54,697 bases of DNA from a virus. Position 1 is the first letter of the stretch. The number at the start of each line of letters is the position of its first letter. Where the stretch lies: the IMG/VR virus record IMGVR_UViG_3300046507_000245, positions 1 through 54,697 of that record; one strand, 5' to 3'. The notes beneath the pieces are model-generated. The model saw nothing but the letters and a program-made list of their open reading frames with translations. It searched no databases and was not told where the DNA came from. Position numbers and translations under genes: made by a program. Shown here piece by piece: positions 8,560 through 54,465 of this stretch.

Positions 8560-9900
8560 TCAGATTGCGGTCGTCTGCCGCTTTTCCGGCGGGACGATAA
8601 AGCGGCGCAACTCCGCGCTGACTGACGTGCGCCGCGCTTCTGACGGCAGGACAAAGCACCTTGATTCGGCTGCCACCAATCCTGATCGCCGCTCTGCTGG
8701 CACAACGAACTGGATCGGCTTCGAGGTGCTTGCCGAGGCTGGACCGGTCACAGCCCCAGATGCGAGAGCCGTGTTCGGGTTCTGCGCGCTGGCGTTAGCG
8801 CCGCTTACAGCGATGGTGCCTGCGCCAGACGACATTGCCGCGGCCTGCGTCGACAGGCCCGATCCAAATACAGAAACCGCGCCAGTCGCCGCCGAAAGAT
8901 TCGCAGCCTGAGTGCTAGCCGCACTGCCTTGCGCGATATTGCCGATTGCACCCGAAGCATTCGAGACGTTCGGCGTTTGCGTGCTGGATGCGGAACCGGA
9001 AACCTTGACTGCACCCGATGCCGCGCTTACGTTGGCTTGCTGTGTAGAGGCGCTGGCACCAGAAACCGACACAAGGCCCGATGCAGAGTCTGAATTCGCG
9101 GCCTGAATCGACGACCCAACGCCGCCGACAATCACGACACCAGATGCAGCGCTCGCGTTCTTTGTCTGCGTAGATGCCGCGGCACCTGAAACGGAAATCT
9201 TCCCGCTTGCAGCGCTAACGTTGGATGCCTGCGAGCTTGCCGCCGAAGCCGAGACGCCGACAGATGCCGAAGCGGTCGAGACATTCAATTGTTGCGTGCT
9301 AGCCGCCGAGCCCGTCACCGTGGCAGCAGAGGCGAGGTATTTAGCCGCGCCGAGCCAGGTATTGCCGCCAGACTGAAGCGTTTTAACCGTGCAGGCGATC
9401 GTGAGCGTTTGGCTAGCCGAGTTCGCCGAGTAGGTTAGCGTGGTGCTGTAATAGCCAGGATTGCCGGCTCCCGTGGCCGTAGGCGTGTGCGTTACCGCCG
9501 TCGCGCTTCCATCCGAGAGCGTTGCGACGAGCTGCGCTGCGCAACTATTGGCGCCCCAATAGATCGTGACCGTACGCGAGGTCGTGTCAGCCGGCAGCGT
9601 GAACTGGAAACCCTGCCCGACAGCCGGCGTCGTGGCCTGTTCAGCAATACCCTCTGTTACGGCTGTTCCTGACGCTTGGGGCGTACCACCTGTCCACGTA
9701 TAGCCGATGCCAAACGTGAATGTGCCCATCGACACACCTGAGCCCAGCAGGGTAGCCAGGCCGATAGTCGAGCCGCCGCCACTTTTCCGGTTAGGCGTCG
9801 TTACCGAGTGATACTCGATCCAGTCGGTTTGCGCAGGAGACGAAAGATTGAATGTCTCTGTGCCGGCAAGAATGGTTGTCGAGCCGGATAGGCTGCCCAT
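8560..9900 (-). CDS. repeat-containing tail fibre protein
   Basis: 446 residues. The N-terminal 195 residues are beta-rich and probably form an attachment domain. Residues about 198-388 consist of nine units of about 21 residues with the pattern ASTQ-xx-N-x-SxASG-x-V-x-VSG, low in charge and rich in Ala, Ser and Gly, as expected for a fibrous shaft. The C-terminal 55 residues carry an imperfect internal duplication (FVVPAERRSG, FVLPSEARRT, FIVPPEKRQT). The role in host binding is inferred from composition and position next to the adaptor. Confidence 0.8.
   Translation of the reverse strand: MGSLSGSTTILAGTETFNLSSPAQTDWIEYHSVTTPNRKSGGGSTIGLATLLGSGVSMGTFTFGIGYTWTGGTPQASGTAVTEGIAEQATTPAVGQGFQFTLPADTTSRTVTIYWGANSCAAQLVATLSDGSATAVTHTPTATGAGNPGYYSTTLTYSANSASQTLTIACTVKTLQSGGNTWLGAAKYLASAATVTGSAASTQQLNVSTASASVGVSASAASSQASNVSAASGKISVSGAAASTQTKNASAASGVVIVGGVGSSIQAANSDSASGLVSVSGASASTQQANVSAASGAVKVSGSASSTQTPNVSNASGAIGNIAQGSAASTQAANLSAATGAVSVFGSGLSTQAAAMSSGAGTIAVSGANASAQNPNTALASGAVTGPASASTSKPIQFVVPAERRSGLVAAESRCFVLPSEARRTSVSAELRRFIVPPEKRQTTAI
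8737..9309 (-). repeat. nine tandem 63-base units in the fibre gene
   Basis: The DNA encoding residues about 198-388 of the fibre protein repeats with a period of 63 bases (21 codons); one unit is 69 bases. Units have diverged, so this is an old, selected protein repeat rather than a recent DNA expansion. Confidence 0.75.
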
Positions 9901-43565: not shown

Positions 43566-43748
43566 ATGGACGACGGCGCCGAGTGGATCCAGCAGATTCA
43601 AATCGAAGAACAGCAACAGTACGAGCAAGAGCGAAAAGGAGAAACAAATGAGCATCGCAACTTTGATTTTGGGCGAAAGCGGCACCGGCAAGTCGACCAG
43701 CATGCGCAATCTGGACCCGTCGCAGACCCTTTTGATCCAGGCGATTAA
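43566..43748 (+). CDS. possible small Gln/Glu-rich protein
   Basis: 60 residues. The first 28 (MDDGAEWIQQIQIEEQQQYE ...) fill the gap between two genes. The rest overlaps the Sak4-like gene by 101 bases in another frame. Ribosome-binding site weak. It may be real, with a tail of overlapping sequence. Confidence 0.3.
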   Translation: MDDGAEWIQQIQIEEQQQYEQERKGETNEHRNFDFGRKRHRQVDQHAQSGPVADPFDPGD

Positions 43749-44304
43749 AAAGCCGCTGCCCTTCCGCGCCAAGGGTTGGTCGTATCGCACGAAGGAAAAC
43801 CCGAGCGGCAACATCTTCGTGACGGACAAGGCCGACCAGATCATCACGCTGATGAGCAAGACGCAGCGCAAGGTCGTCGTGTTCGACGACTGGAATCTGA
43901 TGATGACAAACGAATTCATGCGCCGCAGCTCGGAAACAGGGTTCCAGAAGTTCAGCGAGATTGGGAAAAGCGCATGGGACGTGATGATGGCTGCCTCGAT
44001 CCTCGCTGATGACGTACGGGTCTACTTCCTAGGCCACGTATCGACCGACGAACTCGGTCACATCCGGGCCCGCACGATCGGCAAGATGCTCGACGAAAAA
44101 TGCCCTGTCGAATCGCTTTTCACGATCGTCCTGCGCGCGACTTTAATCAACGGGCAGCACATCTTCAGCACGCAGAACAACGGTTCCGACACCTGCAAGT
44201 CGCCGATCGACATGTTCGCCGATCACCACATCGAAAACGACCTCGCCATGGTCGACCAGAGCATCACCGACTTTTACGGCATCACCCAACCGGCTACGGC
44301 CTAA
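43648..44304 (+). CDS. Sak4-like RecA-fold ATPase
   Basis: 218 residues. Walker A GESGTGKS (9-16), Walker B-like VVVFDDWN and a C-terminal DQSITDFYGI end correspond to phage RecA-core ATPases of the Sak4 type, which act with a single-strand-binding protein in phage recombination. The next gene encodes an SSB-like protein, as in many Sak4 neighbourhoods. AAAGGAGAAAC upstream of the ATG. Confidence 0.82.
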   Translation: MSIATLILGESGTGKSTSMRNLDPSQTLLIQAIKKPLPFRAKGWSYRTKENPSGNIFVTDKADQIITLMSKTQRKVVVFDDWNLMMTNEFMRRSSETGFQKFSEIGKSAWDVMMAASILADDVRVYFLGHVSTDELGHIRARTIGKMLDEKCPVESLFTIVLRATLINGQHIFSTQNNGSDTCKSPIDMFADHHIENDLAMVDQSITDFYGITQPATA

Positions 44305-44327
44305 CAAGCAACCAACAGGAACGCACC

Positions 44328-44966
44328 ATGTACGCATTGAACAACGAAACGAGCCAGGCAGCGCGCAAGGCCGAACAGCGAACCAGCTTCATCGACCAGA
44401 AAGGCAAGTACGTCGGCAAGTTCACGCGCGCCGAAGACATCAAGGCGCAGAGCGGCACCCGCGGCGTGGCCTTCACCTTCGAATCGGACGACGGGCAGAA
44501 GTCGAACTTCTCGATCTACACCATCAAGTCGGACGGCGAGAAGCTCGGCGATTACGGCTTGCTGATGGCGATCATGACGTGCATCGGCGTGCGCGACATC
44601 AAGCCCGCGCAGGTGGCCTCGATGGTATGGGATAAGGAGGCCGGCGCGAACGTCAACAAGACGCTGTCGCAGTTCCCCGAGTTGCTGAACAAGCCGATCG
44701 GCATCTTGCTCGCGATGGAGGAATACGAGAAGCGCGACGGCAGTGGCACTGGCTGGAGCGCTCGCCTGAATGCTGTGTTCCAAGCATCCACCGAACTGAC
44801 GGCAGCCGAGATTCTGGATCGCAAGACGACGCCGCAGAAGTTGCCGCAGCTAGTCGCTGCTCTGAAGGATCGCCCGCTGAAGAAATCTGGCACGTCGAAC
44901 CCGTTGAACTCGCCGGCACCGGCAGGCGGTGGTTTTGACGGAATGGACGACGACATCCCCTTCTGA
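44328..44966 (+). CDS. SSB-like protein with acidic tail
   Basis: 212 residues. The core (YVGKFTRAEDIKAQSGTRGVAFTFESDDGQKSNFSIYTI) is OB-like in pattern. A disordered Pro/Gly linker ends in GMDDDIPF, the same type of acidic D-D-I-P-F tip with which bacterial SSB recruits partners. It most likely coats ssDNA for the Sak4-like ATPase. Family identity rests on tail and context rather than on a full-length match. Confidence 0.72.
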   Translation: MYALNNETSQAARKAEQRTSFIDQKGKYVGKFTRAEDIKAQSGTRGVAFTFESDDGQKSNFSIYTIKSDGEKLGDYGLLMAIMTCIGVRDIKPAQVASMVWDKEAGANVNKTLSQFPELLNKPIGILLAMEEYEKRDGSGTGWSARLNAVFQASTELTAAEILDRKTTPQKLPQLVAALKDRPLKKSGTSNPLNSPAPAGGGFDGMDDDIPF

Positions 44967-45020: not shown

Positions 45021-45263
45021 ATGGAGACATTCAGTGATTGGTTTGCGAAGTCGATTAAGCCGAAGCACGTCGGCGCGTACGAAGTGCGTCGGCCGCCAAA
45101 TGGTCGACAGGTAGTTCGATGGTTTAGTTGGTGGGATGGCAAGAAATGGGGATTCACGGCACAGACGCCGGCGGGCGCCGAGTCGTGCAAGCACAGAGTG
45201 AGCCGAGAAGCGCTGCGGATCGGCGGCTTCGAGTGGCGCGGCAAAACGAGGAGAGCAAAGTGA
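45021..45263 (+). CDS. small hypothetical protein
   Basis: 80 residues. HVGAYEVRRPPNGRQVVRWFSWWDGKKWGFTAQTP and FEWRGK give a W-rich small beta domain like that in the 41407 gene. The last codons overlap the next GTG start. Function unknown. Confidence 0.7.
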   Translation: METFSDWFAKSIKPKHVGAYEVRRPPNGRQVVRWFSWWDGKKWGFTAQTPAGAESCKHRVSREALRIGGFEWRGKTRRAK

Positions 45264-46363
45264 GCACAGAACTGACAGTTATCGAGCGCGCGGCGAAGGC
45301 GCTTGGGTCCGCCGACCATGAACCGGCGCTGGTTGAACTGGCGAAGCAGGCCGCCGACATCACAACCATCAAGAACGCGGACGGCCGCGCTCAGGTGCAC
45401 GGCGCGTACATGACGCTCAAGACGCGCCGCACCGACATCCGCAAGGCCGGCAAGGATGCGCGCGACGACGCGACGAAGTTCAGCAAGGCCGTGATCGCCG
45501 AGGAAGATCGGCTGGTCGCGATCATCGAGCCGGAAGAAACTCGCCTGCTGAAGTTGCGCGAAGGATGGGATCTGGCCGTTGAAGCCGAGCGCCGAGTTAA
45601 GGCTCAAGCCGAAGCCAATCGCGTCGCCACGATCCGCGCGATGATCAATGACATGGGGGCAATCCCGGTCGGACTCGTTGATGCGAGCGCCGAGAAGATC
45701 GCCAGCGCGATCGACGACCTCGACATGTTCGAAGTGACGTCGGCAGCATTCGACGAGTTCGTCGATTCTGCGCATCTCGTGCGCACCGCAATCCTCGCCA
45801 AACTGCGCGACATGCACGCGTCTGCCGTGCGCCGCGCCGAGGAAGCCGCGCAACTGGCCGCCGAGCGCGCCGAATTGGAGCGCCTCCGCGCCGAGCAAGC
45901 GGAACGTGAACGCGTGGCCGCCGCAGCGCGCGCCGAGCAGGAGCGAATCGACCGCGAGCGCCGCGAGGCAGAGGACGCTCAGCGCCGCGCCGAGCAAGAG
46001 GCGGAGCAGCGCAAGATCGACGATCAACGCGCCGAAATCGCGCGCCAGCAGGCGGCAGTCGACGCAGAGCGCCAACGACTCGCCGACGAGGAAGCCGCCC
46101 GGCAGCGTGCGGCAGCCGAAGCCGCAGCCGCCGCGCAACGCGAGCGCGAAGAAGCGGCACGCGCCGAATCAGCCCGCATTCGCGCCGAGCAGGATGCGAA
46201 GAATGCCGAGGTGAAGCGCCGCGAGCGCGAGCAGTTCGTTCTCAACGGGCCGTCCGCCGCCGAGATCATCGAAGCGCTCGCTGAACGATACGACGTCGAT
46301 TGCTGGACGGTATCCGGCTGGATGTGCCGCCATGTTTGGGCCGAGGTCGAGGTGGCAGCATGA
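45260..46363 (+). CDS. long coiled-coil protein (DUF1351-like)
   Basis: 367 residues, GTG start in a GTGA overlap. The N-terminal 120 residues (ADGRAQVHGAYMTLKTRRTDIRKAGKDARDDATKFSKAVI) resemble phage proteins encoded with recombination nucleases. Residues about 195-330 are an uninterrupted Arg/Glu/Ala coiled coil. The end (EIIEALAERYDVDCWTVSGWM) is a small helical domain. Probably a structural partner of the recombination genes. The strong antisense frame here is a composition artefact. Confidence 0.8.
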   Translation: MSTELTVIERAAKALGSADHEPALVELAKQAADITTIKNADGRAQVHGAYMTLKTRRTDIRKAGKDARDDATKFSKAVIAEEDRLVAIIEPEETRLLKLREGWDLAVEAERRVKAQAEANRVATIRAMINDMGAIPVGLVDASAEKIASAIDDLDMFEVTSAAFDEFVDSAHLVRTAILAKLRDMHASAVRRAEEAAQLAAERAELERLRAEQAERERVAAAARAEQERIDRERREAEDAQRRAEQEAEQRKIDDQRAEIARQQAAVDAERQRLADEEAARQRAAAEAAAAAQREREEAARAESARIRAEQDAKNAEVKRREREQFVLNGPSAAEIIEALAERYDVDCWTVSGWMCRHVWAEVEVAA

Positions 46364-46848
46364 GCGTCGCATACAGAGCAATGATGTTCGCGCGGTCTGT
46401 CCACGCCGAACAGATGCGCAAATACACCGGCAACCCGTACGTCGATCACCTGGCAGAAGTTGCCGGGATAGTCGCGACCGTCGCGATGGACACAGAAAAT
46501 GCCGTGGCCGTCGCATGGCTGCACGATTGCGTCGAGGACCAAGGAGTCGCTTCGGACACGCTGCGCGAAATGTTTGGCGAGATCGTGACGGCAGGCGTAA
46601 TTCTCCTGTCTGACCTTGAGACGGGCAACCGGGCCGAGCGTAAGGCTGCGTCGCGCGCACGTCTGGCGAATGCCCCAGCATGGGTGCAGACGATCAAGTG
46701 CGCCGACCTCATCAGCAACACGTCAAGCATCGTGAAGCATGACCCGAAATTCGCGGTGACATACCTGGAGGAAAAGCGGCTTCTTCTTGACGTTCTGACA
46801 AAAGCCGATCGGCGCCTGCATCAACTCGCGTTGGAGCAATCGAAATGA
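46360..46848 (+). CDS. HD-family (p)ppGpp hydrolase-like protein
   Basis: 162 residues. RKYTGNPYVDHLAEVAGIVA, AVAWLHDCVEDQG and VQTIKCADLISNTSSI are the three blocks of small alarmone hydrolases (MESH1 / SpoT HD domain). His30, His55-Asp56, Glu59-Asp60, Asp116 and Asn120 supply the metal and catalytic residues. It is full length for a hydrolase-only protein, with no synthetase domain. It would cut (p)ppGpp to GTP/GDP and could blunt the stringent response during infection. The biochemical call is by family; the role is inferred. Confidence 0.85.
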   Translation: MSVAYRAMMFARSVHAEQMRKYTGNPYVDHLAEVAGIVATVAMDTENAVAVAWLHDCVEDQGVASDTLREMFGEIVTAGVILLSDLETGNRAERKAASRARLANAPAWVQTIKCADLISNTSSIVKHDPKFAVTYLEEKRLLLDVLTKADRRLHQLALEQSK

Positions 46849-47081
46849 GCCGCGCCAATTTACTCGCCAGCATCGACAGCGCTGCAGCTCGCGCGCAAGC
46901 ATTCCAGGACATGCCCGTCACCGAGGTTCCGATCGTGCACTTACGCGAACTGCTGCGCGAGGCACAGACGGCGGTTGACGTGGCAATCGCTCAGCGCGAC
47001 ATCCTAGCGGCGATCGTGCGCATCCGCGAACTCGAAGGCATTGATCGGACGCGAGCTCTCATAGCTAAATTTTATCCTTAA
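46845..47081 (+). CDS. small helical hypothetical protein
   Basis: 78 residues, all-helical and amphipathic (VHLRELLREAQTAVDVAIAQ, AAIVRIRELEGIDRTRAL). Coupled to the hydrolase gene by ATGA. It ends three bases before the next operator. Unknown function; could partner the hydrolase. Confidence 0.7.
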   Translation: MSRANLLASIDSAAARAQAFQDMPVTEVPIVHLRELLREAQTAVDVAIAQRDILAAIVRIRELEGIDRTRALIAKFYP

Positions 47082-47151: not shown

Positions 47152-47646
47152 ATGAACCTGTTCGAAATTTCCCGCGAGTACCGAGACGCGGCCGACACCC
47201 TGGCCGAGATGGATCTGGACGAAACCACGGTGCGCGACACGCTGGAGTCTATCAGCGGCGACCTGTCGACGAAGGCGCAGAACATCGGATTCGTCATCAA
47301 GAACATGGAATCGACGGCCGAGCAGATCAAGGCGCACGCCAAGGCGATGCTCGACCGCGCGAAGGCGCTGGAGAACCGCGCGTCGAACGTGAAGCAGTAC
47401 CTGTTCGACGGAATGAAGCTAGCGAACGTGCCGAAGATCGAAACGCCGTTCTTCAAGCTTGCGATCCGCGACAACCCGGCGGCCGTTCAGATCGACGACG
47501 AGTCGCTGATCCCGGCGAGCTACAAGACCGAGCCGGTACCACCGCTGCCGGCACCCGACAAGAAGCTGATCGCCGCAGCGCTGAAAGACGGCTTCGAAGT
47601 GCCGGGCTGCCGCCTTGTACGCGGCCAGCGCCTCGAGATCAAGTAA
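47152..47646 (+). CDS. Siphovirus Gp157 family protein
   Basis: 164 residues. MNLFEISREYRDAADTLAEM, the long helix LSTKAQNIGFVIKNMESTAE and the C-terminal FKLAIRDNPAAVQIDDESLIP ... PDKKLIAAALKDGFEVPGCRLV match the Gp157 family. The family is reported in streptococcal phage resistance and is generally found beside recombination genes. The AAGGAACCGAAA leader precedes the ATG. Confidence 0.9.
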   Translation: MNLFEISREYRDAADTLAEMDLDETTVRDTLESISGDLSTKAQNIGFVIKNMESTAEQIKAHAKAMLDRAKALENRASNVKQYLFDGMKLANVPKIETPFFKLAIRDNPAAVQIDDESLIPASYKTEPVPPLPAPDKKLIAAALKDGFEVPGCRLVRGQRLEIK

Positions 47647-47977: not shown

Positions 47978-48156
47978 CGCGATCGCAGAAAGAGTGCTTA
48001 AACCGCTTCCTCGCTGCGGTGCGCGACGGGCGAAGCGGGAATTACACGAAGGCCGGCGAGATCGTCGAGCGCGTGCGCAAAGCGGCTGGCGATGCGGCGG
48101 CAGAGACAGCAAAAAAAGAACTATGGGCCTATATCAAGGGCGACAAGAAAGCATGA
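47962..48156 (+). CDS. small helical protein
   Basis: 64 residues, overlapping the previous gene by 16 bases and the next by four. CLNRFLAAVRDGRSGNYTKAGEIVERVRKAAG is amphipathic and helical, with a basic end (KGDKKA). No motif. Possibly an accessory to the methyltransferase that follows. Confidence 0.65.
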   Translation: MDATLARSQKECLNRFLAAVRDGRSGNYTKAGEIVERVRKAAGDAAAETAKKELWAYIKGDKKA

Positions 48157-48812
48157 GAAAAGAAATCATTGGCGAGGCCACGCTGTATTTAGGTGATATG
48201 CGCGAGATCATTCCGACGCTCGATCGCGTCGACGCTGTTATCACTGACCCACCCTACGGTATCAGCATCACGAGAAGCAACCGAATCAGCAAGGAACGCG
48301 GATTTGCGGCCGACAGTTGGGACGACGCGCCGATCGGCGAGGCGCATTTATCGCTGATGCAGGCGGCCGGCGCCAAACATCTCTATTGGGGTGGCAATTA
48401 CTTTCAGCTTCCGCCGGCGCGTTGCTTCCTGATTTGGGACAAGCAAAACGAAGGGCGCGATTTCGCCGACTGCGAACTTGCATGGACGGACATCGACGCC
48501 GTTGCGCGCATCTTCCGTATGCGCCCGCAGAACATGGACGGCGGAAAGGTTCATCCGACGCAGAAGCCGATCGCCCTAATGGAGTGGTGCATCCAGATCG
48601 CCGGCCTTCCCGAGACGATCCTTGACCCGTTCATGGGTTCAGGAACGACAGGCGTTGCAGCTACCCGCCTTGGACGCTCATTCATCGGAATCGAGCGGGA
48701 GCCGAAATACTTCGACATCGCCTGCCGTCGCATTGAGGACGCCCAGCGTCAGGAGTCGCTTTTCGAAGCGCTGCCCACGGTGAAGCACGAACAGATGGGG
48801 CTGCTCGCATGA
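48153..48812 (+). CDS. DNA N6-adenine or N4-cytosine methyltransferase
   Basis: 219 residues. DPPYGI (32-37) is the catalytic motif IV, and LDPFMGSGTTGVAA (about 157-170) is the AdoMet-binding motif I. The order (IV first, I last) marks the beta class. No restriction enzyme gene is nearby, so it is an orphan methyltransferase, probably for anti-restriction or regulation. ATG 48153 overlaps the preceding stop. Confidence 0.93.
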   Translation: MRKEIIGEATLYLGDMREIIPTLDRVDAVITDPPYGISITRSNRISKERGFAADSWDDAPIGEAHLSLMQAAGAKHLYWGGNYFQLPPARCFLIWDKQNEGRDFADCELAWTDIDAVARIFRMRPQNMDGGKVHPTQKPIALMEWCIQIAGLPETILDPFMGSGTTGVAATRLGRSFIGIEREPKYFDIACRRIEDAQRQESLFEALPTVKHEQMGLLA

Positions 48813-51758: not shown

Positions 51759-52208
51759 ATGCCAGCACCGCGGAAGGATTACACGAGAGCGGTCGAACTT
51801 TATAAAGCCGGTCTTTCGCTTGCTGATGTAGCCGAACAATTCTCGGTGACTCGCCAAGCGATGCACAAAATCCTCACGCGTCGCGGCGTCGAAATGCGAC
51901 AGCCCAATCTGCAGCCGGTAGTTGAATGGCGTGGCCGAAAGTTTACGCGTCGAGAAAACGGGTACTACGCCGAAACAACGGGCGATCGAGAATACCTGCA
52001 TCGTGCGATGTGGATAGAAGCGCACGGTCCGATTCCAGACGGATATGAGGTTCATCACAGGAATGGCGATAAGGAAATAAACGATCTTGGAAATTTCGAA
52101 CTGCTCAGTAGCGTAGAGCATGGGAAAGCGCACGGTTTCGCTGGAAATCAATATGTCCCGTCAACAGGCAAGAGGCCGGTTAAATGCGAGCTTTCTACAA
52201 CGAAATAG
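51648..52208 (+). CDS. HNH homing endonuclease fused to methyltransferase remnant
   Basis: 186 residues from ATG 51648, or 149 from the internal ATG 51759 (GGAGCATAGAG upstream), which is probably the native start. After the remnant, a helix-turn-helix (AGLSLADVAEQFSVTRQAMHKIL) is followed by an HNH_3 domain (YLHRAMWIEAHGPIPDGYEVHHRNGDKEINDLGNFELL) with intact His-His and Asn. The DNA is more AT-rich than its surroundings. The end overlaps the methyltransferase start by 25 bases. A mobile gene by family and context. Confidence 0.85.
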   Translation: MPGAYYNEIDPYAAQWLRNLIAKGHIAAGEVDERSIEMPAPRKDYTRAVELYKAGLSLADVAEQFSVTRQAMHKILTRRGVEMRQPNLQPVVEWRGRKFTRRENGYYAETTGDREYLHRAMWIEAHGPIPDGYEVHHRNGDKEINDLGNFELLSSVEHGKAHGFAGNQYVPSTGKRPVKCELSTTK

Positions 52209-53221
52209 ATACGTACTGCTGCGACTGGCTGAGCAATTTAATGGACGCAGGACATATCACACCCGGCGTCATTTGTGACAAATCTATTGAGGACGTGTTT
52301 CCGGATGAGCTACGAGGATTCGACCGCTGTCACTTCTTCGCCGGGATCGGCGTCTGGGACTACGCGCTCAACCTGGCCGGATGGGGAGAGAGACCTGTTT
52401 GGACCGGTAGTGCGCCGTGCCAACCTTTCAGCCAGGCAGGCAAAGGCGCTGGGTTTTCTGACGAGCGGCACTTATGGCCTGCGTGGGACTGGCTCATCAG
52501 CGAGTGCCGACCTGCAGTCATCGTTGGAGAGCAGGTTGCGAGCAAAGACATCGATCCTTGGATCGACCTTGTTCAAGCTGACCTGGAAGCGATGGGTTAC
52601 GCCATCGGGTGTGTCCCGTTCCCGTCTGCGGGCGTCGGTGCTCCGCACATCCGCGACCGCGCGTATTTCATGGCCCACGCCGACGGTCAACGACTCCACG
52701 GGAAGCGCGTACGCGTACAGCCGGGGAAATCACGACAAGCCAGTTCTGAAACTGGTCGGAGCGGCGCAGTTGGCATCGTGGCCGACTCCGATGGCAGGCA
52801 CACCGGCTCAGAAGGGCTACAACGCGGCAGGCAACACGGACAGCAGTCGGCGCACGGTGGCGCTCGTTGCGGGGTGGCCGACGCCGGCAGCGAGCGATGG
52901 CTCGGGCGGCAAGGGATTCAGGCCGGGCGTATCGATGACCGGGCTCATGCCGGACGGCTCGAAAGTGACGATGGATCTGTCGGCGTCGACGAAGCTCGCA
53001 TTTCACGAATTGAACCAGCCGGCCCGACTAACGGTTTCTGGCGAGATGCTGATTGGCTGCTCTGCCGGGACGAAAAGTGGCGGCCAGTTGAACCCGGCTC
53101 ATTCCCGCTGGCTGATGGCGCTCCCGCCCGAGTGGGACGACTGCGCGCCTACGGTAACGCGATCAACGCGCAAGCGGCAGCAGAGTTCATCCGCGCAGCG
53201 CGCGAAGCAATCGAACTATAG
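52184..53221 (+). CDS. C5-cytosine DNA methyltransferase
   Basis: 345 residues. Motif I FFAGIG (51-56), motif IV APCQPFS (77-83) with the nucleophile Cys79, GEQV in place of ENV (115-118), motif VIII-like RDRAYF (157-162), and motif X RAYGNAI near the C-terminus. Residues about 165-290 are low-complexity and rich in Gly, Arg, Ser and Asp with VAD/MAHAD repeats, and coincide with a second conserved frame. GFWRDADWLLCRDEKWRPVEPG is typical of phage orphan methyltransferases. Probably protects phage DNA. Its first 36 codons look newly acquired. Confidence 0.92.
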   Translation: MRAFYNEIDTYCCDWLSNLMDAGHITPGVICDKSIEDVFPDELRGFDRCHFFAGIGVWDYALNLAGWGERPVWTGSAPCQPFSQAGKGAGFSDERHLWPAWDWLISECRPAVIVGEQVASKDIDPWIDLVQADLEAMGYAIGCVPFPSAGVGAPHIRDRAYFMAHADGQRLHGKRVRVQPGKSRQASSETGRSGAVGIVADSDGRHTGSEGLQRGRQHGQQSAHGGARCGVADAGSERWLGRQGIQAGRIDDRAHAGRLESDDGSVGVDEARISRIEPAGPTNGFWRDADWLLCRDEKWRPVEPGSFPLADGAPARVGRLRAYGNAINAQAAAEFIRAAREAIEL

Positions 53222-53230: not shown

Positions 53231-54022
53231 ATGAGCACGAATACGGATGCAGTTACCCGCGAGCAGATCGAAGCATGGGCCAAGCTGGCCGGTATCGAGC
53301 ATTTCACCGAACAAGGTCTCGCTCGCTTGGGCGACTTCGCAATCTTCGCGCGGCAGGAGCGAGTGCAGGCGGAGGCGGTGCGGGAACTTCGCGAGGCTGC
53401 GCGGCAATTTCACAACCTTACGCAGGGTGACCCAGAAGTAATCATTCGGCCGCCAACGTTCACAAAGCGCGACGCCATCATTGCAGCAGGAGAACGCTTG
53501 AGGGCCGCTCTCGCCACCACTCCGCAGACAGACGGCGCGACTGTACCGACGCTGAAGCCGCGCCTTTTGAACCAACTGAGGCGGTTCAACGAATGCTGCG
53601 AAGATTCCGAAGCGGACGGCCACGACGTTGACAAAGAGGATATGCACTCACTCGCCGAAATGGGCGCAGTGCGACCGGCACCCGGCGGCCGCCACTACAT
53701 GACCGACTTCGGACATTACCTTCTCGCCGCTACCCACGCTCCCGCGATGGCAGAGACGGTGCGAATCTCATTGCTTGAGAAGGCACTGGTGTATGTCGCG
53801 CATTCGATGCACAGCGAACCACAATACATGTTGGCCGAAGGCATCACTCTCGGAGATGTCAGCTACGTGCGTGTGAATGTCGGCACTCTAGACGTTTCGG
53901 TGCAGATACCCGAGAGTGTCGCTCGCGCGATATACGACACGGCCGCCCAAACGACTGCGCGCAAAATCGCTGAGCGGCGCGATGCTATTGCCGCTGCATC
54001 TGGCGGAGAGCTGGAATCGTGA
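53231..54022 (+). CDS. modular hypothetical early protein
   Basis: 263 residues. The N-terminal part (REQIEAWAKLAGIEHFTEQGL) resembles small phage modules. A linker (ATTPQTDGATVPTLKPRL) is followed by a helix-turn-helix-like region (LLNQLRRFNECCEDSEADGHDVDKEDMHSLAEMGAV ... HYMTDFGHYLL). The C-terminal 90 residues have mixed structure. Starts nine bases after the methyltransferase. Function unknown. Confidence 0.75.
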   Translation: MSTNTDAVTREQIEAWAKLAGIEHFTEQGLARLGDFAIFARQERVQAEAVRELREAARQFHNLTQGDPEVIIRPPTFTKRDAIIAAGERLRAALATTPQTDGATVPTLKPRLLNQLRRFNECCEDSEADGHDVDKEDMHSLAEMGAVRPAPGGRHYMTDFGHYLLAATHAPAMAETVRISLLEKALVYVAHSMHSEPQYMLAEGITLGDVSYVRVNVGTLDVSVQIPESVARAIYDTAAQTTARKIAERRDAIAAASGGELES

Positions 54023-54465
54023 GCCTCGTCATCGTGCCAACAACGCTGGCCGAGGCAAATGCTTTCGTCTCCCAGCACCATCGCCATCACAAGCCGGTCA
54101 TCGGGCACAAATTCAGCATCGCGGCAGCTGCGGCGGACGTTATCCACGGCGTGGCGATCATCGGCCGCCCGGTTGCTCGTGGCAACGACGACGGCATGAC
54201 ACTGGAGGTCAATCGTTGCTGCACTGACGGCACACGTAACGCCTGCTCGATGCTCTATGGCGCGGCGTGGCGCGCAACTAAGGCAATGGGCTATCGCCGT
54301 CTCATCACCTACACGTTGCCAACCGAGGGCGGCGCAAGCCTACGCGCAGCTGGCTGGACGCTGATCGGAGAGCGTGGTGGCGGCAATTGGAACACACCGG
54401 CACGTCCGCGAATCGATACCGACGCCGCATTGCGCGGTCAGAAACTACTTTGGGAGGCTGCATGA
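54019..54465 (+). CDS. XF1762-like acetyltransferase-fold protein
   Basis: 148 residues. ANAFVSQHHRHHKPVIGHKFSIAA, IIGRPVARGNDDGMTLEVNRCCTDGTRNACSMLYGAAWRATKAMGY and LPTEGGASLRAAGWTLIGERGGGNW match the XF1762 family, a GNAT-like fold common in phages. Substrate unknown. Coupled by ATGA at both ends. Confidence 0.88.
   Translation: MSLVIVPTTLAEANAFVSQHHRHHKPVIGHKFSIAAAAADVIHGVAIIGRPVARGNDDGMTLEVNRCCTDGTRNACSMLYGAAWRATKAMGYRRLITYTLPTEGGASLRAAGWTLIGERGGGNWNTPARPRIDTDAALRGQKLLWEAA

What the first reader, a model, noticed from the sequence alone, without database searches (positions are those of the whole stretch)
46360..46848. Phage-encoded small alarmone hydrolase
Seen: all HD-family (p)ppGpp hydrolase residues (His30, His55-Asp56, Glu59-Asp60, Asp116, Asn120) in a hydrolase-length protein without synthetase domain. 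Known: host MESH1/SpoT enzymes remove (p)ppGpp. Inference: the phage may suppress the stringent response, or counter toxic alarmone synthetases used in phage defence.
Basis: partly seen in the sequence, partly recalled or inferred. Interest (0 to 1): 0.6.

Follow-up and report, generated by a model that had tools for sequence, protein, structure and literature searches.

The report
Phage small alarmone hydrolase, PaSpo type
A temperate bacterial virus carries, as an optional extra gene, a small enzyme of a known type that strips pyrophosphate from bacterial stress nucleotides or from poisoned tRNAs; it looks real and intact, but it is a new example of something already described in other phages.

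Summary
Window 46360-46848 (+) encodes a 162-aa stand-alone HD hydrolase with every catalytic residue named. It is a real gene: ATGA overlaps at both ends, strong purifying selection, and 71 related loci in viral contigs (up to 84% identity). Sequence, profile and structure agree on a small alarmone hydrolase (SAH): the AlphaFold2 model (pLDDT 96.1) aligns over all 162 residues with MESH1 (Z 23.6) and well with Pseudomonas SAH (Z 22.9), against about 12.5 for other HD nucleotidases. The window is a temperate myovirus-like phage. Neither it nor 40 related records encode an alarmone synthetase, so this is not half of a toxin-antitoxin pair. The gene is accessory cargo: close relatives have the same recombination operon without it. 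It groups with PaSpo of Salmonella phage SSU5 (43% identity), published as neutralising toxSAS toxins (FaRel2 by removing the tRNA 3'-pyrophosphate). Best reading: a PaSpo-type SAH protecting phage replication from toxSAS/CapRel-like defences, general (p)ppGpp removal being the main rival. Enzyme class about 95% likely; role about 50%; substrate untested. New member of a known kind.

The parts
46360..46848 (+). Stand-alone HD-type small alarmone hydrolase, 162 aa (PaSpo-like)
46420..46428 (+). Codons 21-23 (K21 Y22 T23), part of the substrate-side RKYTGNPY loop that follows invariant R20
   Evidence: equivalent to the RK(S)GEPY loop of Rel/SpoT
46447..46449 (+). His30 codon, predicted metal ligand
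   Evidence: Invariant in A1
46522..46539 (+). HDCVED motif, codons 55-60: metal ligands H55/D56 and catalytic E59/D60
   Evidence: Invariant in A1
46705..46719 (+). Codons 116-120: D116 (predicted metal ligand) to N120 (predicted base/ribose contact), followed by the PaSpo-type NTSSIV..DP.F...YL.EK signature
45254..46363 (+). Upstream coiled-coil phage protein (phrog_21091, unknown function), lying with the hydrolase in the stretch that is absent from close relatives
46845..47081 (+). Small downstream phage gene; in relatives it directly follows the gene at 45021-45263, which marks the empty site
43648..44966 (+). Recombination genes of the same operon: Sak4-like annealing protein and ssDNA-binding protein
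47152..47646 (+). Siphovirus Gp157-family protein, same operon
   Evidence: 6.2e-47

Best explanation
The gene encodes a catalytically intact, metal-dependent small alarmone hydrolase of the PaSpo type. It removes the 3'-pyrophosphate from purine ribonucleotide ends: the alarmones (p)ppGpp and/or (p)ppApp, and very possibly the pyrophosphorylated 3'-CCA end of tRNA. It lies in the early recombination operon, so it is probably made early in infection. Its most likely selective value is to undo the products of host toxSAS-type defences such as CapRel or FaRel2, which would otherwise stop translation or drain ATP. Shown here: intact conserved enzyme, predicted fold, kinship with phage SSU5 PaSpo, no partner synthetase, accessory and movable cargo. 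Inferred: early expression, substrate, counter-defence role.
For: All catalytic residues present and invariant in 62 relatives. Profile and fold matches to solved SAHs over the full length. 43% identity over 152 aa to SSU5 PaSpo, including the NTSSIV..DP.F...YL.EK block. The tree places window, SSU5 and phage homologues in one group apart from host SpoT, B. subtilis Rel, fly Mesh1 and the PVP-SE1 enzyme (93/95). SSU5 PaSpo reverses FaRel2's tRNA modification and was co-expressed to allow CapRel production (PMC11559606; PMC9712102). No synthetase in window or 40 related records. Present in only 1 of 27 records that share terminase or SSB genes with the window phage, and an empty site is seen in close relatives: the pattern of an accessory anti-host or anti-defence gene. 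Host genomes that carry such prophage genes already have their own RelA and SpoT.
Against: No activity has been measured for this protein. The tree group with SSU5 falls just short of the usual bootstrap threshold (93). Base and substrate specificity among SAHs varies and no residue rule is known (PMC7644958). A neighbouring case is cautionary: cyanophage MazG, presumed to act on ppGpp, does not (PMC6850273). No toxSAS of the actual host is known, and the host itself is not identified.
Confidence: 0.55

Rival explanations
1. The enzyme mainly lowers host (p)ppGpp, keeping rRNA, nucleotide and replication capacity high during infection of starved cells or on prophage induction (a classic stringent-response suppressor).
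For: Rel/SpoT/Mesh1 hydrolase fold and full active site; (p)ppGpp is the best known substrate of the superfamily. A published phage annotation paper proposes this for a Pakpunavirus SAH (PMC12846349).
Against: Hosts already have SpoT; the gene is rare and patchy rather than core; the nearest characterised homologue is documented against toxSAS products.
Confidence: 0.28
2. It is a (p)ppApp-directed or promiscuous SAH that shields the lysogen from (p)ppApp-making toxins of competing bacteria or phages (a lysogen fitness gene).
For: Several SAHs prefer (p)ppApp (PMC7644958; PMC9765508), and the window phage is temperate (integrase, repressor).
Against: It sits in the early recombination operon with ATGA overlaps, which suggests lytic rather than lysogenic expression; no specific (p)ppApp feature could be read.
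Confidence: 0.12
3. It acts on another 3'- or 2'-phosphorylated cofactor (NADPH, CoA, PAPS) as metazoan MESH1 can.
For: Closest solved folds are MESH1, including NADPH and PAPS complexes; a paper names MESH1 a CoA phosphatase (PMC13221220, abstract).
Against: The stretch of Mesh1 just before its C-terminal tyrosine is a gap in the phage family (alignment), and a bacterial SAH without the Mesh1 nicotinamide-ribose motif is weak on NADPH (PMC9765508).
Confidence: 0.04
4. It is an antitoxin of a phage-borne toxSAS toxin-antitoxin pair.
For: Some SAHs are toxSAS antitoxins (ATfaRel; PMC11782079).
Against: No RelA_SpoT synthetase domain in the window or in 40 related viral records; neighbours are not conserved.
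Confidence: 0.01

Closest known systems
PaSpo SAH of Salmonella phage SSU5 (SSU5_099, AFL47026.1)
   Same: Phage-encoded, stand-alone HD hydrolase; 43% identity over 152 aa; same active site and same NTSSIV..DP.F...YL.EK block; same tree group.
   Different: SSU5 protein has a C-terminal extension (213 versus 162 aa) and unrelated neighbours; its activity against toxSAS is published, that of the window protein is not.
Metazoan Mesh1 / MESH1
   Same: Whole-length fold (Z 23.6, 162 residues, 1.8 A) and catalytic residues.
   Different: Only about 25% identity; the stretch before Mesh1's C-terminal tyrosine is missing; outside the phage group in the tree.
Pseudomonas aeruginosa SAH (6yvc, 6z3n)
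   Same: Single-domain SAH, Z 22.9, 27% identity.
   Different: Chromosomal bacterial enzyme, low identity.
Host long RSH enzymes (SpoT/RelA of Burkholderiales)
   Same: HD_4 hydrolase domain.
   Different: Multidomain with synthetase; a separate clade in the tree.
Putative SAH of Pseudomonas phage Adele (Pakpunavirus)
   Same: Phage-encoded SAH annotated with similar proposed roles (PMC12846349).
   Different: Lytic phage; sequence not compared here.

Membership tests
Small alarmone hydrolase (RSH superfamily) | HD hydrolase motif residues (H, HD, ED, D, N) intact | tested here: met
   all present and invariant
Small alarmone hydrolase (RSH superfamily) | Hydrolase domain alone, no synthetase, TGS or ACT domain | tested here: met
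   162 aa, only HD_4 over its cut-off; no PF04607 in the window
Small alarmone hydrolase (RSH superfamily) | All-helical HD fold of solved SAHs | tested here: met
   Model pLDDT 96.1; Z 21-24 to Mesh1 and bacterial SAHs versus 12.5 for YpgQ
Small alarmone hydrolase (RSH superfamily) | Mn2+-dependent 3'-pyrophosphate hydrolysis of alarmones | not testable with these tools
   Needs enzyme assay
PaSpo subgroup | Clusters with PaSpo of phage SSU5 apart from other SAHs and long RSHs | tested here: met
   Group of 26 rows, support 93/95, with deep order inside unresolved; the published subgroup tree was not rebuilt with its own members
PaSpo subgroup | Neutralises toxSAS toxins, incl. tRNA de-pyrophosphorylation (shown for SSU5 PaSpo) | not testable with these tools
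   Published for SSU5 only
toxSAS toxin-antitoxin system (SAH antitoxin) | Encoded beside a toxSAS synthetase | tested here: not met
MESH1-type NADPH phosphatase | Nicotinamide-ribose interaction motif of Mesh1 | tested here: inconclusive
   The region before the C-terminal tyrosine is a gap in the phage family, but function was not tested
Bifunctional Rel/SpoT | HD plus RelA_SpoT synthetase in one protein | tested here: not met

The most novel reading that the evidence does not exclude
A widespread, horizontally moving family of phage hydrolases in Burkholderiales phages is specialised to repair tRNAs pyrophosphorylated by CapRel-like defences, i.e. a dedicated anti-toxSAS counter-defence enzyme rather than a stringent-response modulator.
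Probability: 0.3. Interest if true: 0.5.

Novelty: new member of a known kind. Interest (0 to 1): 0.27.

Why it matters
ToxSAS proteins such as CapRel are a recognised antiphage defence. Phage SAHs can reverse their products, yet whether phages carry them for that purpose is, as far as the papers found here go, still an inference from overexpression. This family is common, comes with natural 'with' and 'without' versions of one operon, and so offers a direct test.

Tried and rejected
Synthetase partner: PF04607 search of the window and 40 related records found none. Conserved operon partner: immediate neighbours differ among 84 informative loci, so neighbourhood gives no functional hint beyond 'early/recombination region'. 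PADLOC families: none for the hydrolase or nine other window proteins. Substrate from sequence: the published residue lists are said by their authors not to be decisive (PMC7644958), so not pursued. DNA-level similarity of the right arm to known phages: only short patches, so no named close phage. Host by tRNA: none in the window. Alternative upstream TTG start at 46300 (182 aa): rejected because relatives start at the equivalent of 46360. Antisense ORFs over the gene (46024-46542, 46169-46681, minus strand) were taken as GC-rich by-products and not pursued. The PVP-SE1 SAH sits on a very long branch, so its place in the tree is unsure.

Full report
Observation. Its ATG overlaps the stop of the upstream gene (ATGA at 46360) and its own stop overlaps the ATG of the next gene at 46845, so it belongs to a compact operon. 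An alternative TTG start at 46300 exists, but relatives start at the position of 46360.

Family. Pfam HD_4 matches at 3.8e-13, phrog_990 'metal-dependent phosphohydrolase' at 7.8e-36 and NCBIfam spoT_relA at 7.8e-16, over the N-terminal hydrolase positions only and far below that model's whole-protein cut-off. Among solved structures the single sequence hits Rel/RelA hydrolase domains and SAHs; a 62-sequence profile hits Mesh1 at 1e-31 and many SAHs and Rel enzymes.

Conservation. In alignment A1 the invariant residues are H15, R20, Y27, H30, V34, H55, D56, E59, D60, V80, R94, K113, A115, D116, N120, I124 and P129. Compared with relatives at 73-84% identity, non-synonymous change is far below synonymous change (pN 0.10-0.18 against pS 0.55-0.87); most close pairs of relatives have dN/dS of 0.06-0.3, the exceptions being pairs with very few changes. 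The enzyme is under strong purifying selection.

Structure. AlphaFold2 on A1 gives mean pLDDT 96.1 and pTM 0.91, all helical. Foldseek's best hits are fly Mesh1, P. aeruginosa SAH, Leptospira SAH and human MESH1. VIA-align gives Z 23.6 with 162 residues at 1.8 A for MESH1, 22.9 for P. aeruginosa SAH, 22.0 for C. glutamicum RelH and 18.7 for SpoT, dropping to 12.5 for YpgQ-type HD proteins. In BFVD the top matches are viral proteins, 26-40% identical among the first six.

Which SAH. The tblastn search of phage records finds 192 with a relative, all under 60% identity. Salmonella phage SSU5 PaSpo is 43% identical over 152 aa, including the C-terminal block NTSSIV..DP.F...YL.EK. A maximum-likelihood tree puts the window, SSU5 PaSpo and other phage homologues in one group (93/95), apart from Burkholderiales SpoT, B. 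subtilis Rel, fly Mesh1, Lmo0812 and the PVP-SE1 SAH; the deep order within the group is unresolved, and PVP-SE1 is on a very long branch.

Literature. paSpo is one of seven SAH subgroups defined in 2011 (PMC3153485). SSU5 PaSpo counteracts FaRel2 by removing the modification it puts on tRNA (PMC11559606) and was co-expressed to allow CapRel-SJ46 purification (PMC9712102). SSU5 and PVP-SE1 SAHs alleviate FaRel toxicity (as reported in PMC7644958). SAHs differ in base preference and no residue rule is known (PMC7644958). A phage SAH with similar proposed roles was annotated in Pseudomonas phage Adele (PMC12846349). Cyanophage MazG, once presumed to act on ppGpp, does not (PMC6850273, title and abstract).

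Context. The window is a virus record with integrase, repressor, terminase, portal, tail sheath and tape measure genes: a temperate myovirus-like phage. The hydrolase lies in the rightward operon with Sak4, SSB, Gp157 and NinB. No tRNA and no alarmone synthetase is present; 40 related viral records also lack a synthetase, although some are fragments.

Mobility. Relatives of the hydrolase occur in 71 viral loci and 15 genome contigs, many of them Burkholderiales (Paraburkholderia, Pararobbsia, Cupriavidus, Caballeronia, Undibacterium, Solimicrobium), with different neighbours. In phages with close Sak4 (up to 94%) and SSB (79-85%) genes, the order Sak4-SSB-gene 45021-gene 46845-Gp157-NinB is kept, but gene 45021 is followed directly by gene 46845: the hydrolase and the 45254-46363 gene are absent. 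In L015 the hydrolase lies elsewhere, 2 kb upstream of SSB. Of 27 long records sharing terminase or SSB genes, one carries it, though records may be fragments. It is therefore accessory cargo. Six bacterial genomes carrying such prophage-type genes all have their own SpoT and RelA, so the phage enzyme does not supply a missing host function.

Mechanism. Shown: an intact, selected, stand-alone SAH without partner, of PaSpo kinship, in a variable slot of the recombination operon. Inferred: metal-dependent removal of 3'-pyrophosphate; early expression; use against toxSAS products. The counter-defence role is favoured because the nearest characterised homologue does this, the gene is patchy, and the host already has SpoT. 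Stringent-response suppression is the main rival, and the two are not exclusive.

Verdict. A confirmed, well-identified new member of a known kind.

Noticed in passing
45254-46363: Coiled-coil phage protein upstream of the hydrolase (phrog_21091, unknown function). A 77% identical relative sits 4 kb upstream of SSB in phages L154-L156, so this gene too changes position.
   Followed up: partly
48102-48812, 52184-53221, 54019-54465: N6/N4 DNA methylase, C5 cytosine methylase and a Mom-like DNA modification protein in one rightward operon: probable anti-restriction set.
   Followed up: no
L127 859-2139 (-) in G046 (Solimicrobium): Extra stand-alone synthetase-domain protein (about 430 aa) in a host genome that also has two phage-type SAHs (L110, L113); could be a SAS or toxSAS.
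   Followed up: partly
L084: Gammaproteobacterial MAG relative read as a 449-aa open frame, far longer than the usual 160-180 aa: possible fusion of the SAH with another domain.
   Followed up: no
window 8560-9900 (-): 446-aa frame between the integrase and the tail genes without any PHROG or PADLOC match.
   Followed up: no
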